Assembly (NCBI RefSeq): GCF_029774155.1
Contig: NZ_CP103833.1
Coordinates: 682,001-746,000, forward strand
Direction of reading: 5' to 3'
DNA length: 64,000 bases
Source: Actinobacillus arthritidis
GTDB taxonomy: Bacteria; Pseudomonadota; Gammaproteobacteria; Enterobacterales; Pasteurellaceae
In this document: positions 17,831-25,353 of the stretch, in pieces
Position numbering within the stretch: the stretch's first letter is position 1
Layout of the letters: the number at the start of each line of letters is the position of its first letter
Notes under the pieces: model-generated
Seen by the model: only the letters and a program-made list of their open reading frames with translations
What the model was told of the DNA's origin: nothing
The model's database searches: none
Made by a program: the position numbers and the translations under genes

Positions 17831-19156
17831 ATGATTATCCTTAATTTAGCTGTATTTACAGCATTACTTTTCCTACTATTTTTACTGTATAAGAACACGC
17901 AAAAATTAGGACAAACTGTTTTTGTCGGCTTATTACTTGGGGTAGTAAGCGGTGCAATTTTGCAAAATTTTTACCAAAAAGCTGAAATTGATGCGAGCTT
18001 AGAATGGATAAATTTAGTTGGTAATGGTTATGTACGCTTGTTGCAAATGATCGTAATGCCATTAGTATTTATTTCAATTTTATCGGCGATTACTCGTCTA
18101 AAACAAGCAGGATCATTGGGTAAAATCAGTTTTAGTGTGTTATCGGTTTTATTGGTTACTACAGCGATTGGTACGCAATCGGTATTGCAATGGTCTATTT
18201 ATTTGATTTATCGGCGGAAGGATTGGTTGCTGGTGAGGAGAGAATTGGCGGCACAAGGCAAAGTCGCTGGGCGAGTAGAGCAAGTGTCAAACTTATCTGT
18301 CCCGGCAATGCTAGTGTCCTTCATTCCGAAAAACCCGTTCTTAGAATTAACCGGTGCAAACCCGACCTCAATTATTAGCACGGTAATTTTTTCTGCATTT
18401 TTAGGCATAGCAACATTAAGCCTTGCCAAAGAAGATGAAGCGTTAGGCGAACGTATTGCAACTGGTGTAGATACGTTAAATAAATTAGTGATGCGTTTAG
18501 TCCGCTTTGTGATTCGTTTAACCCCTTACGGCGTATTTGCTTTAATGCTGAAAATGGCGGCGACATCAAAATGGGAAGATATTGTGAATCTAGGTAGCTT
18601 TATCGTTGCTTCCTACTTAGCAATCGGCTTAATGTTTTTAGTGCATGGTATTTTGCTTTTCGTGGCAAAAGTGAATCCGTTTGATTATTATAAAAAAGTG
18701 TTACCAACACTCAGTTTTGCTTTTACTTCTCGTTCAAGTGCGGCGACTTTACCGTTAAATATCGAAACGCAAACCGATAAATTAGGTAATCAGAATGTTA
18801 TCGCGAATTTCTCAGCGACTTTTGGTGCAACCATTGGGCAAAACGGCTGTGCGGGGATTTATCCGGCAATGTTAGCGGTAATGGTCGCACCAACGGTAGG
18901 TATTGATCCATTTAGTATTAGCTACGTTGTCACGTTAATTCTAGTGGTAGCAATTTCTTCATTCGGAATCGCAGGCGTTGGCGGCGGTGCGACCTTTGCG
19001 GCAATCGTGGTGCTTTCCACCTTAAATTTACCGATTGAATTAGTCGGCTTATTGATTTCGGTTGAACCGCTAATTGATATGGGACGTACCGCATTAAACG
19101 TAAACGGTTCAATGGTGGCAGGTACATTAAGCAATAAGTGGCTTAACCGAGCATAA
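17831..19156 (+). CDS. tcyP: L-cystine uptake symporter TcyP-like (sodium:dicarboxylate family)
   Basis: Inner-membrane symporter close to E. coli YdjN/TcyP, which imports L-cystine. ATG 17831 fits best: GGAG lies 6 bases before it, whereas the upstream TTG at 17819 would include the ribosome site. The 441 residues carry LLQMIVMPLVFISIL, AFTSRSSAATLPLN, GATIGQNGCAG and SVEPLIDMGRTALNV. Between about 18175 and 18237 the frame is wrong: a G is missing near 18175 (gtacgcaatc for gtacggcaatc) and one is extra near 18237 (tgaggagaga for tgagagaga). Correcting both replaces about 20 odd residues by the family-like AMVYLFDLSAEGLVAGERE. Confidence 0.88.
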   Translation: MIILNLAVFTALLFLLFLLYKNTQKLGQTVFVGLLLGVVSGAILQNFYQKAEIDASLEWINLVGNGYVRLLQMIVMPLVFISILSAITRLKQAGSLGKISFSVLSVLLVTTAIGTQSVLQWSIYLIYRRKDWLLVRRELAAQGKVAGRVEQVSNLSVPAMLVSFIPKNPFLELTGANPTSIISTVIFSAFLGIATLSLAKEDEALGERIATGVDTLNKLVMRLVRFVIRLTPYGVFALMLKMAATSKWEDIVNLGSFIVASYLAIGLMFLVHGILLFVAKVNPFDYYKKVLPTLSFAFTSRSSAATLPLNIETQTDKLGNQNVIANFSATFGATIGQNGCAGIYPAMLAVMVAPTVGIDPFSISYVVTLILVVAISSFGIAGVGGGATFAAIVVLSTLNLPIELVGLLISVEPLIDMGRTALNVNGSMVAGTLSNKWLNRA

Positions 19157-19215
19157 CAAGCGGTGTTTTTGGGCAAAAATTTTACGAAATTTGACCGCTT
19201 ATTATCGAAAATAGA

Positions 19216-19235
19216 AAAGGGGCGTAAGCCCCTTT
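19216..19235. terminator. Bidirectional terminator between tcyP and tetR-family gene
   Basis: Perfect 8-bp stem AAAGGGGC / GCCCCTTT with loop GTAA between convergent genes. An uptake-signal pair (ACAAGCGGT at 19158, ACCGCTT near 19193) lies just upstream. Confidence 0.82.
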
Positions 19236-19241
19236 GTCTTT

Positions 19242-19796
19242 TCAAACAGTTTGAAGTGCTTTTAGAATTTGTTCAATTTCATTCCAGACTTGTTTTACCG
19301 GAATCGTTGAATTTCGCTCAAAGTAATATTGCATCGTCTTTAAAATTATCGTGGCGACTAACTCACCTTGATAATCTAAATTGTGATGGGGGAGTTTAGC
19401 TTGCTGGGTAGCAATATAATTGTTTTTTATCATCAAAAACATATCGTCCCACAGATGATGGCGTTTTGTTTTGATTTTCCATAACATCAAAATTACTTCT
19501 CGTTTTTGATAGAATTGAGGCAAAATGTCATCAATAAATTTATTCAAATCAAGAGTCTGCTTTCTTTTATCAATTAAATTGGCGTATTCAGCTTTAAATT
19601 CGTTAATCATTACACCTGCCAAATCGCTTTTACCTGAATAATATTTATAAAAGGTATTTCTATTAACTAATGCTCGCTCAAGAATTTCTTGTATTGCAAT
19701 GTTTTCAAAGGGTTTTTCTTTCAATAATTCCATAAAAGCGGTGCGAATAACTTTATGTGTTTTTTGCACTCGCAAATCTTGTTTTTCAGATGACAT
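19242..19796 (-). CDS. TetR/AcrR-family transcriptional regulator
   Basis: 184 residues. The N-terminal helix-turn-helix is clear: VIRTAFMELLKEKPFENIAI (about 17-36), QEILERALVNRNTFYKYYSGK (helices 2-3), then a ligand-binding domain of the TetR_C type with many aromatic residues. The ligand is unknown. It is transcribed divergently from a carotenoid-hydratase-family membrane protein 158 bases away, so that gene is the likely target. A 20-bp near-palindrome in the shared spacer could be the operator. The unit may have been acquired from Neisseriaceae (see terminator at 20786). Confidence 0.88.
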   Translation of the reverse strand: MSSEKQDLRVQKTHKVIRTAFMELLKEKPFENIAIQEILERALVNRNTFYKYYSGKSDLAGVMINEFKAEYANLIDKRKQTLDLNKFIDDILPQFYQKREVILMLWKIKTKRHHLWDDMFLMIKNNYIATQQAKLPHHNLDYQGELVATIILKTMQYYFERNSTIPVKQVWNEIEQILKALQTV

Positions 19797-19828
19797 AACA
19801 ATTTTTCTCTAAATTATCCAGTTATTAG

Positions 19829-19848
19829 TACATTTCTAAAAATTTGTA
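19829..19848. promoter_or_regulatory. Possible TetR-family operator
   Basis: TACATTTCTAAAAATTTGTA has perfect TACA/TGTA ends and a loosely symmetric A+T centre, in the 158-base spacer between the divergent tetR-like and DUF422 genes. TetR proteins usually bind such palindromes in their own divergent promoter. The symmetry is imperfect, so confidence is modest. Confidence 0.4.
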
Positions 19849-19954
19849 TGCTTATTATAGCGGTTTTACTCTGTTTTGACTGTATTTATCGGCAGAACAA
19901 TCACTTAAAATAGTTTTATCTTTATTCAGCAATATTTTAAGAGAGAAATAAAAT

Positions 19955-20782
19955 ATGACACAAAAACAATACACTAATTTAAATATCGGAAGGTGGTTAT
20001 TGATAGGAATAATGTTCGTCCTAACGGCGTACTTGTTATTTGCCCCCGAAATGTTGGCTCCGCTCGGTCCACTTTTTGCAATATTGATCGCAGTATTTGC
20101 TTTTTGGCATGGTTATCAAAGATTTGGTGCTAAAAATATGATTATTTTCTTCTTAATCACTTGGATCATTAGTCATTTCTTTGAATCATTGAGTGTTTCT
20201 ACCGGATTTCCTTTCGGGCATTATCATTATAAAGCTCTACCTGGCCCAAGAATTGCTAATGTGCCATTGATTATTATGCCAGCCTATTTTGCAATGGGTT
20301 ATACGTCCTACATTTTAGGACAAGTGCTAACTGGTCAATATGGCAAGAAACTACAAGATATCCATATTTTTATTACACCATTTGTGGCAACATTCATTAT
20401 GGTAATGTGGGACGTTCTAATGGATCCTTTGGCGACAACGATTAACCAATCTTGGGTTTGGAGAGATAGCGGTGCTTATTTTGGCGTACCCCTTTCTAAT
20501 TTTGTAGGTTGGTTTTTTGTGGTTTATCTGTTTATGCAATTATTCTTACTCTATCTTGCAAAATACGATAAAATGCCCCCAAAAAACTATGACAATGCTT
20601 TTTGGCTAGAAGCAGTAGCGGTTTACGCTATTAAAGGTTTATCTTTTATTATTCCAGCCTTTGTGTTGAAGAGTAATGTTGAAATGAATGGTTCGATTGC
20701 TTTAATTTCTGTTTTTACTATGATGTTTGTTGCTTTGCTTTCAGTAATTAACATCTTTACTATGCAAGTTCGTACCTCATAA
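19955..20782 (+). CDS. Carotenoid biosynthesis (CruF/DUF422) family membrane protein
   Basis: 275 residues with about seven hydrophobic segments. The family pattern is plain: HFFESLSVSTGFPFGHYHY (about 70-90), GPRIANVPLI, then WDVLMDPLATT (about 152-162) and WVWRDSGAYFGVPLSNFVGW (about 169-188). Named members are hydratases of carotenoid end groups such as CruF; no other carotenoid gene is in the window and Pasteurellaceae are not pigmented this way, so the true substrate is unknown. GAGAGAAATAAA precedes ATG 19955. Divergent from a TetR regulator and closed by a Neisseria-type DUS terminator. Confidence 0.85.
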   Translation: MTQKQYTNLNIGRWLLIGIMFVLTAYLLFAPEMLAPLGPLFAILIAVFAFWHGYQRFGAKNMIIFFLITWIISHFFESLSVSTGFPFGHYHYKALPGPRIANVPLIIMPAYFAMGYTSYILGQVLTGQYGKKLQDIHIFITPFVATFIMVMWDVLMDPLATTINQSWVWRDSGAYFGVPLSNFVGWFFVVYLFMQLFLLYLAKYDKMPPKNYDNAFWLEAVAVYAIKGLSFIIPAFVLKSNVEMNGSIALISVFTMMFVALLSVINIFTMQVRTS

Positions 20783-20785
20783 TGA

Positions 20786-20818
20786 AAAGATGCCGTCTGA
20801 ATTTCAGTCGGCATCTTT
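20786..20818 (+). terminator. Terminator containing a Neisseria DNA uptake sequence
   Basis: AAAGATGCCGTCTGA pairs with TCAGTCGGCATCTTT (14 of 15 positions) around a 3-base loop. The left arm with the loop contains the complete 12-base Neisseria DUS, ATGCCGTCTGAA (20790-20801); the right arm is a copy with one change. Neisseria commonly uses inverted DUS pairs as terminators; this is foreign to a genome that otherwise uses ACAAGCGGT. Confidence 0.85.
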
Positions 20819-20921
20819 ATTATAGTTCGGTTTTATGTATAGGCTATGTATATGGAATTACAGATCTTAAGTAGTGAAAAAATCCTTGCTATAAATCTGG
20901 TTCCTTACTAGGTAATTAAAA

Positions 20922-20942
20922 ACCGTACGTTTTACGTATGGT
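20922..20942 (-). terminator. Terminator after nitroreductase gene
   Basis: On the minus strand ACCATACGT-AAA-ACGTACGGT (one G-U pair) followed by TTTTTAATT, 13 bases past the stop of the nitroreductase gene. Confidence 0.75.
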
Positions 20943-20954
20943 ATATATAGATTA

Positions 20955-21617
20955 CTATTCCACCCAACTAATCACATCTTCAGCTGGTTTGCGGTATTTT
21001 TTTGTAATCGGTTTCGCACGATAACCGAAGGTCACCATGCAAGAAACACCGTATTCGTTAGCGTCAAATAAACCTTCTTTCGCTAAGATTTCGTTTACCG
21101 CATCATAGTTAAAGCCTTCAATCGGACAAGAGTCAATGCCAATCATTGCCGCACCGGTCATCATATTGCCAAGCGCAATATACGTCTGTTTTGAACACCA
21201 ATCGAATAAGGTGCGTTCACTTTCTAATACTTTAATATCATCGGTTTGAAATGATTTATAACGGGCAATAGTGGCATCCATTTGTTCCGGTGTTAAGCCA
21301 CGTTTAGATAAGCCTTGACGGAAGAAATCCGAATCATAACGTGCATTTTTCTTGGCAAGAATGACAACTAAATGGCTCATTTCGTTCATCGGGTGTTTAA
21401 TCCCCCAAGAAACCGGTGCAATTTTTTCACGGATAGTCGCATTTTGTAGCACAATAAATTTCCAAGGCTCGGAACCGACCGAACTTGGCGATAATCTACC
21501 AAGTTCTAAAATATATTCCATGTCCTCACGGCTGATTTTCTTAGCCGGATCATAAGTGCGGCAAGCTGAACGGAAGCTGAATGCGTCTAAAACATCTTGT
21601 TTGCTAATATGTGACAT
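20955..21617 (-). CDS. NAD(P)H-dependent nitroreductase family protein (NfsB-like)
   Basis: Flavin (FMN) oxidoreductase of 220 residues that reduces nitro compounds or quinones in the cytoplasm. The FMN-binding start FSFRSACRTYDPAKKIS (residues 13-29), LSPSSVGSEPWKFIVL and the later TYIALGNMMTGAAMIGIDSCPIEGF are family hallmarks. It is monocistronic between a terminator and a 265-base spacer. The native substrate cannot be read from sequence. Confidence 0.9.
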   Translation of the reverse strand: MSHISKQDVLDAFSFRSACRTYDPAKKISREDMEYILELGRLSPSSVGSEPWKFIVLQNATIREKIAPVSWGIKHPMNEMSHLVVILAKKNARYDSDFFRQGLSKRGLTPEQMDATIARYKSFQTDDIKVLESERTLFDWCSKQTYIALGNMMTGAAMIGIDSCPIEGFNYDAVNEILAKEGLFDANEYGVSCMVTFGYRAKPITKKYRKPAEDVISWVE

Positions 21618-21882
21618 AATTTCCTCGTATTGTATGTAAGAAATGCGGTGATAATACGCTTTTCTTGTAAGTTAAGCCAATGATTCCTTATAACAAATAG
21701 TGAAACTTGATTTTTGTAAAAGAACGCCAAAAACAGACTGCTGATTTTAAGTGAGTTATTCAAATAGAATATTTTTATGAAACCTTAAAAATCAACACTT
21801 TAGCTTAACTTTACATTTACTTTCTTTAGGCAAAGTATTATTATCACCATAATTTTTCAGCAATATATTAAGAGGATAGGTA

Positions 21883-22965: not shown

Positions 22966-25353
22966 ATGAAATTTAATGAATCTTGGTTGCGTGAGTGGGT
23001 AAATCCTGCAGTATCGACAGAGCAATTATGCGACCAAATTACCATGTTAGGTTTAGAAGTCGATGATGTTGAGCCGGTTGCTGGTGCATTTAGCGGTGTC
23101 GTTGTGGGTGAAGTGGTTGAATGTGCTCAACACCCGGATGCGGATAAATTACGTGTAACTAAAGTGAATGTAGGCGGTGATCGCTTATTAGATATCGTAT
23201 GCGGTGCACCAAACTGCCGTCAGGGCTTAAAAGTGGCATGTGCAACGGAAGGCGCTGTATTACCGGGCGATTTTAAAATTAAGAAAACCAAATTACGCGG
23301 TCAGCCGTCTGAAGGTATGCTTTGTTCATATTCTGAATTAGGCATCAAAGAAGATCATAGCGGTATTATCGAATTACCGGCGGATGCGCCAATTGGTAAA
23401 GATTTCCGTGAATATTTAGATTTAAATGATGTGGCAATCGAGATCAGCTTAACGCCAAACCGTGCAGACTGTTTAAGCATTGCCGGTATCGCACGTGAAG
23501 TGGGTGTAATTAACCGAGCGGAAGTAAAAGCACCGGTGATTTCAGCCGTACCTGCAACGATTGCGGACAAAGTTGCTGTAGAATTACAAGCACCGGAAGC
23601 TTGCCCGCGTTACCTTGCTCGTGTTGTGAAAAATGTAAACGTAAAAGCGGCTTCACCATTGTGGCTACAAGAGAAATTACGCCGTTGTGGTATTCGTTCA
23701 ATCGACCCGATTGTCGATATTACTAACTTAAGCCTGTTAGAACTTGGTCAACCGATGCACGCTTTTGATGCGTCTAAAATTGATGGTGCTATCCAAGTCC
23801 GTATGGCAAAAGAGGGTGAAGAATTAGTTTTATTAGACGGTACAACCGCAAAATTACAACCAAATACTTTAGTGATTGCTGATAGCAAAGGTGCATTAGC
23901 GATGGCAGGTATCTTTGGTGGTGAAGCAAGCGGCGTAAATGAAAATACGACTGACGTAGTATTAGAATCTGCATTCTTTGCACCATTAGCGATTACCGGT
24001 CGCGCACGTCAATATGGCTTACACACTGATGCATCACACCGTTTCGAACGTGGTGTTGACCCGCAATTAGCACGTGATGCGATGGAGCGTGCAACCGCAT
24101 TATTACTTGAAATTTGTGGCGGTGAAGCGGGTGAAATTGTTGAAGCAGTAAGCGAACAGCACTTACCGAAACGTAATACGGTTACCTTACGTCGTAGCAA
24201 ATTAGATGCAGTTATCGGTCACCACATTGAAGATGAAATTGTAACGGATATTTTAACTCGCTTAGGTTTAAACGTAACCTTTGCAAATGATAGTTGGACA
24301 GCGGTAGCACCAAGCTGGCGTTTCGATATTGAGATCGAGGAAGATCTTATCGAAGAGGTTGCACGTATCTACGGTTATAACAGTATTCCGAATAATTCTC
24401 CACTTGCACATTTAACGATGAAAGGTACACCGGAGAAATTATTAGAAGCTAGTCGTATTCGTACTGCATTAGTGGATAGCGATTATCAAGAAGTGGTGAC
24501 ATATAGCTTCGTTGATCCGAAAAAACAATCATTATTGCATCCGAATCAAGAAGCGTTAATTCTACCTAACCCGATTTCAAGCGAAATGTCAGCAATGCGT
24601 TTATCGCTTTTAACCGGTTTATTAGATACCATCGTTTACAACCAAAGTCGCCAGCAAACACGTGTTCGTATTTTTGAAGGCGGTTTACGCTTTGTTCCGG
24701 ATGCAACGGCTGAATCTGGCGTGCGTCAAGAGTTCGTATTCGGTGCGGCAATTGTCGGTGATAAACGCCCGGTACATTGGGAAAGTAAAGGCGAAGTGGT
24801 AGATTTCTTCGACTTAAAAGGCGATATGGAACGAGTATTATCGTTAACCTCGGCACGTCATGATTTACAATTTGTGGCAAAACAGTTCCCTGCATTACAC
24901 CCGGGACAATCTGCGGCAATTATGTTAGATGGCAAAGAAATCGGTTTTATTGGTTCGGTTCACCCATCTATCGTGCAAAAACTCGGTATCAAAGGTAAAC
25001 CTGTTGTATTTGAGATTCTAGGTGATGCAATTGCAAATCGCCCGGTTCCAACGGCAAAAGAGATTTCTAAATTCCCTGCGAATAACCGTGATATTGCAGT
25101 TGTGGTTGATGAAAACGTGGCGACTGGTGATGTATTGGCGGCTTGTCGCAATGCCGGCGGTGCAAAATTAGTTGCGGTAAACTTATTTGATGTGTACCGT
25201 GGTGCAAATTTAGAAGCTGGTAAGAAAAGTTTAGCAATTAGCTTAACGGTTCAAGATACTGAAAAAACGCTTGAAGAAGAGGAAATCTCAGCGGTTACTC
25301 AAGCCGTATTAGCGGAATTAGCACAACGTTTCCAAGCATATCTAAGAGATTAG
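22966..25353 (+). CDS. pheT: Phenylalanyl-tRNA synthetase beta subunit
   Basis: 795 residues, as in E. coli. Domains in order: N-terminal [14 protein letters not shown], a tRNA-binding EMAP-like domain (about 40-150, with [15 protein letters not shown]), the B3/B4 editing domain (about 210-390), the B5 domain, a catalytic-like core (about 480-690), and the C-terminal ferredoxin-fold anticodon-binding domain (about 700-795, [15 protein letters not shown]). The frame is intact. The gene is translated behind pheS and followed 16 bases later by ihfA. Confidence 0.97.

What the first reader, a model, noticed from the sequence alone, without database searches (positions are those of the whole stretch)
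20786..20818. Complete Neisseria uptake word in an Actinobacillus-type genome
The terminator after the DUF422 gene contains ATGCCGTCTGAA, the 12-base Neisseria DUS, plus an inverted near-copy, in the typical DUS-terminator layout. The rest of the window uses ACAAGCGGT. A perfect 12-mer in a functional terminator is unlikely by chance, so the tetR-DUF422 unit was probably received from Neisseriaceae.
Basis: partly seen in the sequence, partly recalled or inferred. Interest (0 to 1): 0.8.

Follow-up and report, generated by a model that had tools for sequence, protein, structure and literature searches.

The report
Neisseria uptake tag on inserted gene pair
An Actinobacillus bacterium carries a small inserted gene pair that ends in the DNA "address label" of a different bacterial family, one trace of gene trading between families in which some islands carry the labels of both.

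Summary
ATGCCGTCTGAA lies at 20790-20801 with a one-mismatch inverted copy at 20803-20814, forming a strong hairpin after the DUF422 gene. All 3 exact 12-mers in this 2.27 Mb Actinobacillus genome have such an inverted partner and lie outside genes. tetR-DUF422-hairpin is a 1.7 kb insertion: 6 of 8 other genomes of the genus show the empty site, with 17-22 bp in its place. The Bibersteinia copy ends DUF422 with a Pasteurellaceae USS pair, yet its tetR begins with the exact 12-mer, as does the closest tetR found in 83 Neisseriaceae genomes (71% identity). The neisserial mark is therefore real. "Received from Neisseriaceae" is only partly supported: DUF422 was found in 0 of 83 Neisseriaceae, and the window's TetR is sister to, not nested in, a mixed Pasteurellaceae/Neisseriaceae clade. 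The likeliest reading is a module from a pool traded between the families, whose DUS pair now works as a terminator. Following it led to DUS-dense islands in other Pasteurellaceae. In one genus (G034-G037) these hold both DUS and USS densely, and 49 of 145 DUS are fused directly to a reversed USS.

The parts
19238..20955 (.). Inserted segment (tetR, divergent DUF422 gene, DUS hairpin); relatives have 17-22 bp between the flanks instead
   Evidence: in G001, G002, G005, G006, G007, G008 the left flank (to about 19237) runs into the right flank (from about 20949-20956)
19242..19796 (-). tetR-family regulator gene, 184 aa
   Evidence: ORF; PF00440 E 6.7e-07
19785..19796 (-). tetR start ATGTCATCTGAA, 2 mismatches (both transitions) from the DUS12 that starts the Bibersteinia and G848 homologues
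   Evidence: decay of a DUS is inference
19829..19848 (.). Possible TetR operator, imperfect dyad TACATTTCTAAAAATTTGTA in the divergent promoter region
   Evidence: element like ACAAATTTTAAAATCTGTA conserved in 5 aligned loci of both families; function inferred
19955..20782 (+). DUF422 / PF04240 (carotenoid biosynthesis protein family) gene, 275 aa
   Evidence: ORF; PF04240 E 7.4e-36
20786..20818 (+). Hairpin built from an inverted DUS pair, probable terminator
   Evidence: -20 kcal/mol, 0 of 200 shuffles as good
20790..20801 (+). Exact 12-mer AT-DUS ATGCCGTCTGAA
20803..20814 (-). Inverted near-copy of the DUS, 1 mismatch in 12

Best explanation
The sequence is a neisserial AT-DUS arranged as the usual inverted-pair terminator. 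It forms the right part of a 1.7 kb tetR-DUF422 module inserted between a transporter gene and a nitroreductase gene in this Actinobacillus lineage. The module belongs to a pool of regulator-plus-enzyme modules that circulates among Pasteurellaceae, Neisseriaceae and Moraxella. It, or at least its ends, passed through a DUS-using genome before arriving. Shown: the hairpin, the insertion, the patchy distribution, and DUS at the start of close tetR homologues in both families. Inferred: entry by natural transformation and recombination; that the hairpin now only ends DUF422 transcription; that TetR represses the divergent promoter at the conserved dyad; that the DUS has no uptake role in this ACAAGCGGT-using host.
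For: Empty site in 6 of 8 other genus genomes. DUF422 in 2 of 140 Pasteurellaceae. Exact DUS12 at the tetR start (M-P-S-E) in Bibersteinia and in Neisseriaceae G848. The window tetR region is 78% identical to G848 DNA over 541 bp. The other two DUS12 hairpins of this genome adjoin genes shared across families: a DUF4143-type ATPase gene 84% identical in DNA to G848, matched in 12 of 83 Neisseriaceae and 35 of 140 Pasteurellaceae, this genome included, and an Old Yellow Enzyme whose relatives include Kingella denitrificans at 87% and Moraxella cuniculi at 84%. The 12-mer is in 88 of 140 Pasteurellaceae, 331 copies by my sum of the rows, against 10 of the reversed control.
Against: No Neisseriaceae genome searched has DUF422 (0 of 83), and TetR is not nested in Neisseriaceae. 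The Bibersteinia DUF422 lacks a DUS terminator, so the DUS pair may have been joined to DUF422 at the insertion. In 11 of the 12 Neisseriaceae loci with the ATPase gene (one not printed) no GCCGTCTGAA follows it within 110 bases, so that hairpin too was not seen in the other family. Cassette GC (tetR 0.315, DUF422 0.356) is below that of G848 control DNA (0.485) and of its tetR region (0.412).
Confidence: 0.8

Rival explanations
1. The cassette came directly from a Neisseriaceae species (the first reader's reading in its strong form; a sub-case of the best explanation).
For: DUS pair after DUF422; TetR homologue at 71% with a DUS start in Neisseriaceae G848.
Against: DUF422 in 0 of 83 Neisseriaceae; mixed clade with the window outside it; low GC.
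Confidence: 0.3
2. The direct donor was another Pasteurellaceae or a Moraxella that already held neisserial DNA, so the DUS is second-hand (also a sub-case).
For: Closest DUF422 in a named genome is Bibersteinia (79%); DUS clusters occur in several Pasteurellaceae genera; Moraxella relatives of TetR and of the Old Yellow Enzyme.
Against: No donor with a DUS terminator after DUF422 was found.
Confidence: 0.55
3. Chance: a terminator hairpin that happens to spell the DUS.
For: A class-wide sample shows stray 12-mers in 66 of 369 genomes, two of them Pasteurellaceae; within the window alone the excess is weak.
Against: 3 of 3 genomic 12-mers have inverted partners with 1-2 mismatches against 125 of 20,000 random places; the 6 non-Pasteurellaceae loci checked have 3-6 mismatches; homologous tetR genes start with the same word.
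Confidence: 0.04
4. Vertical inheritance with many losses.
For: TetR relatives exist in 39 of 140 Pasteurellaceae.
Against: DUF422 in 2 of 140; empty site in 6 of 8 congeners; the Bibersteinia copy lies between other genes.
Confidence: 0.03

Closest known systems
Inverted-pair DUS terminators of Neisseria (PMC1852404 and PMC3630211, passages seen; the original 1988 and 2007 papers known only from reference lists)
   Same: Same 12-mer, same order of the two arms (GCCGTCTGAA first), short loop, just after a stop codon.
   Different: Found in an Actinobacillus that uses ACAAGCGGT; the second arm has one mismatch.
Haemophilus-Neisseria exchange marked by uptake words (Kroll 1998, recalled, not held; mod locus in PMC3311624, passages seen)
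   Same: Foreign uptake word as footprint of intergeneric transfer; at mod, words of both families are reported.
   Different: Here neisserial words lie in Pasteurellaceae, in several genera and in islands of tens of kb.
DUS dialect mapping of mobile elements and 'peregrine' DUS in Neisseriaceae (PMC7371117, abstract and section list; PMC3630211, passages)
   Same: Uptake-word dialect used to trace foreign DNA.
   Different: By what I saw, that work stays within Neisseriaceae; here the recipient is Pasteurellaceae and some islands carry both families' words.

Membership tests
Neisserial AT-DUS | Exact ATGCCGTCTGAA | tested here: met
   20790-20801
Neisserial AT-DUS | Very many copies in the host genome | tested here: not met
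   3 exact 12-mers and 14 exact 10-mers in 2.27 Mb: a foreign footprint, not the host's own uptake word
Neisserial AT-DUS | Promotes DNA uptake in the host | not testable with these tools
   Needs an uptake assay
DUS-pair intrinsic terminator | Inverted pair with a stable stem after a stop codon | tested here: met
DUS-pair intrinsic terminator | T-rich tail after the stem | tested here: inconclusive
   Not listed by the strict scan; TTT lies inside the predicted stem and ATTATA follows
DUS-pair intrinsic terminator | Terminates transcription | not testable with these tools
   Needs a reporter or RNA ends
Horizontally inserted cassette | Empty site in close relatives | tested here: met
   6 of 8; G003 has another upstream sequence, G004 no clear flank orthologue
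Cassette of direct Neisseriaceae origin | Both genes nested within Neisseriaceae | tested here: not met
   one search had no positive control among the genomes searched
PF04240 carotenoid biosynthesis protein | Pfam gathering score | tested here: met
   124.5 bits against 25; enzymatic role not tested
TetR_N regulator | Pfam gathering score | tested here: met
   29.4 bits against 24

The most novel reading that the evidence does not exclude
The window cassette is one small member of a trading network with bilingual islands: in Pasteurellaceae genus g10 (G034-G037) accessory islands carry DUS densely and USS at or near core density, and about a third of the DUS are fused end to end (or with a one-base overlap) to a reversed Hin-USS, giving one 18-19-mer readable by both uptake systems. 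Such islands would be maintained by uptake bias in both families.
Probability: 0.35. Interest if true: 0.85.

Novelty: new variant of a known kind. Interest (0 to 1): 0.6.

Why it matters
Uptake words are thought to keep transformation within a family, and a passage of PMC3630211 reports no significant transformation of meningococci by USS-tagged DNA. Neisserial 12-mers in 88 of 140 Pasteurellaceae genomes, and islands bearing both words, suggest that the barrier leaks in a patterned way. The leak can be mapped by reading foreign words. The fused words make an open question testable: do such words spread by uptake bias itself?

Tried and rejected
Plasmid and phage origin: no DNA match of the cassette in plasmids; the 25 plasmid records with a protein match are all below 60% identity; none in phages. 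Contamination as the source of DUS islands: rejected for G037, G034, G035, G038, G039 and G001, because an island stretch and a DUS-free control stretch lie on the same contig (counts). Long blocks of one word then the other: rejected for G037, where DUS and USS alternate more than shuffled (46 runs, 30.4 expected, sd 3.8); G039, G034, G035 and G001 have 21, 13, 16 and 16 runs against 18.0, 10.5, 11.0 and 15.8. Close DUS-USS pairing is strong in G037 (34 of 41 DUS with a USS within 150 nt, 9.4 expected), G034 (8 of 11, 2.5) and G035 (14 of 17, 3.6), weak in G039 (8 of 23, 3.1) and absent in G001 (3 of 15, 2.2). Fused words elsewhere: 0 in G039, 0 in viral contigs, 0 papers with the letters. 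One search used a wrong spacer, was my mistake and says nothing. The class sample held no genome with neisserial DUS density, so Neisseriaceae were reached by another route.

Full report
THE OBSERVATION. The 12-mer ATGCCGTCTGAA is at 20790-20801 and its inverted copy, with one mismatch, at 20803-20814; 7 bases separate the 12-mer from the stop codon of the DUF422 gene. The hairpin folds at about -20 kcal/mol with no shuffle of 200 as stable. The strict terminator scan did not list it. The window's native word is ACAAGCGGT, 13 copies with 0.49 expected. The whole genome (2.27 Mb) has 14 exact 10-mers, reversed control 2. They split cleanly: 10 lie in ORFs of 120 aa or more and have only poor inverted partners (3-4 mismatches), so they are probably coding coincidences, the window copy at 23304 in pheT among them. 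Four lie outside and have partners with 1-2 mismatches: the three 12-mers and one 10-mer at genome position 605822. A partner with 2 or fewer mismatches in 12 was met at 125 of 20,000 random places of the window. Of the other two 12-mer hairpins I folded one (-15.9 kcal/mol). G005 has what looks like an intact counterpart of the 605822 hairpin (my reading of the letters).

THE INSERTION. A DNA query of 18700-21700 against the 9 genomes held for the genus (8 besides this one) shows the left flank running into the right flank with 17-22 bp between in G001, G002, G005, G006, G007 and G008. G003 has another upstream sequence and G004 only a distant match of the right flank. So about 19238-20955, with tetR, DUF422 and the hairpin, is inserted. 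The Bibersteinia copy lies between other genes.

RELATIVES. In Bibersteinia the DUF422 gene ends in a USS pair (-23 kcal/mol), while its tetR starts with the exact 12-mer, reading M-P-S-E. The closest tetR among 83 Neisseriaceae genomes (G848, 71% identity) starts with the same 12-mer. That family is unnamed in the tool; I call it Neisseriaceae because G552 has 1,437 DUS12 copies and because a G822 protein start equals that of a Neisseria chenwenguii record. The window tetR starts ATGTCATCTGAA, two transitions away: a decayed DUS is my inference. Upstream of tetR a dyad like ACAAATTTTAAAATCTGTA is conserved in 5 aligned loci of both families, a likely operator. In G848 the gene divergent from tetR is not DUF422, so the regulator has been re-paired.

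TREES. TetR: 33 of the 37 rows, four short or partial rows dropped, with P0122 standing in for the nearly identical G848 protein. The window is sister to G848-like, Bibersteinia and two unnamed rows (the five together 100/99); Moraxella cuniculi, a second Bibersteinia copy and one unnamed row come next. DUF422: 21 chosen rows of the 120 listed; the window groups with Bibersteinia and two unnamed rows, then with a clade that holds Streptococcus thoraltensis. DUF422 is in 0 of 83 Neisseriaceae; the tool warns that an empty answer without a positive control shows little. A direct neisserial donor is thus not shown.

OTHER TAGGED GENES OF THIS GENOME. One DUS12 hairpin lies between a DUF4143-type ATPase gene (name by my reading) and a convergent methylase-like gene. 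The ATPase gene is 84% identical in DNA to G848, with matches in 12 of 83 Neisseriaceae at 74-84% and in 35 of 140 Pasteurellaceae, this genome included, the others at 70-94% and some of them partial. Against my reading, none of 11 Neisseriaceae copies whose downstream 110 bases were printed has GCCGTCTGAA there; one has GCTACCTGAA words. The third DUS12 hairpin lies between an Old Yellow Enzyme gene and a convergent gene. The enzyme's best relatives are Actinobacillus genomosp. 2 (96%), Aggregatibacter kilianii and Kingella denitrificans (87% each) and Moraxella cuniculi (84%); records named Neisseria are at 55-56%.

WIDER PATTERN. The 12-mer occurs in 88 of 140 Pasteurellaceae genomes, 331 copies, against 10 of the reversed control. 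In a class-wide sample it occurs in 66 of 369 genomes, this one and G119 included, and no genome but those two has more than 2 copies. Of 30 Pasteurellaceae loci fetched, one per genome and this genome included, 11 have an inverted partner with 2 or fewer mismatches. The highest counts are G044 33, G039 26, G037 25 and G001 15; for G039, G037 and G001 the listed places are clustered. By my reading of translations the islands are rows of LysR, TetR and AraC regulators with oxidoreductases, restriction-modification-like genes and ATPases.

BILINGUAL ISLANDS. I chose island stretches because they hold DUS, so their DUS density is selected; their USS density is not. G037 island, 36 kb: DUS10 11.4 and Hin-USS 10.0 per 10 kb; G037 control, 80 kb: 0 and 11.2; Neisseriaceae G848, 80 kb: 13.4 and 0.1. 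G034 and G039 islands have DUS10 5.6 and 6.0, and USS 8.2 against 11.2 and 4.7 against 7.5 in control. Some islands do not fit: G038 has USS 0.8 against 6.5 in control, G119 and G006 stretches have 1 and 0 Hin-USS, and two G044 stretches have 3 and 6 Hin-USS per 20 kb against 10-18 in four DUS-free stretches. The G001 island holds AT/AG-, king- and sim-type words plus 11 Hin-USS; none of these is in its 60 kb control. In G848 the tetR region has 5 Hin-USS in 16 kb against 1 in 80 kb, the reverse trace. In the g10 genomes (G034-G037), nine stretches of 170.5 kb hold 145 DUS10 and 147 USS; 38 DUS abut a reversed USS exactly and 11 overlap it by one base. Control stretches of G037, G034 and G035 (180 kb; none for G036) hold no DUS10. 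Two hairpins with both words in both arms fold at -40 and -47 kcal/mol. Fused words were found in no fetched locus outside g10.

MECHANISM. Most likely: DNA of lysed neighbours on mucosa is taken up, modules recombine at permissive spacers, and each family adds its own uptake word by uptake bias. The window cassette arrived this way and kept a DUS pair because the hairpin works as a terminator. The entry route, terminator activity and operator are inferred.

NOVELTY. Uptake-word-marked exchange between Haemophilus and Neisseria is known (Kroll 1998, recalled; PMC3311624, passages, notes both words at mod). Small numbers of DUS10 (6 to 22 per genome) are tabulated for Avibacterium paragallinarum, without follow-up in the passages I saw (PMC10269479). 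Searches showed no title or abstract start describing bilingual islands or fused words; most subscription papers are not held.

Noticed in passing
L109, L110, L117, L194-L199 (genomes G034-G037): Fused bilingual uptake words GCCGTCTGAA(A)CCGCACTT: 49 of 145 DUS10 in 170.5 kb of island; 180 kb of control from three of these genomes holds no DUS10.
   Followed up: partly
   Followed up: partly
L118 (Neisseriaceae G848): Reverse trace: 5 Hin-USS in the 16 kb tetR region against 1 in 80 kb of control.
   Followed up: partly
L062 5919-7526 (own genome): EcoRI-like methylase and endonuclease genes, the latter seemingly lacking its start, with DUS hairpins on both sides; the family name is recalled, not tested.
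   Followed up: no
L060 and L119 (G119, G006): Similar sets of metal-resistance-like genes (P-type ATPase, MerR-type regulators, cation transporter, by my reading) with five DUS12 each, in two Pasteurellaceae genera.
   Followed up: no
window 23304-23313: Second exact DUS 10-mer of the window, inside pheT coding sequence, best inverted partner 4 mismatches: probably chance.
   Followed up: yes
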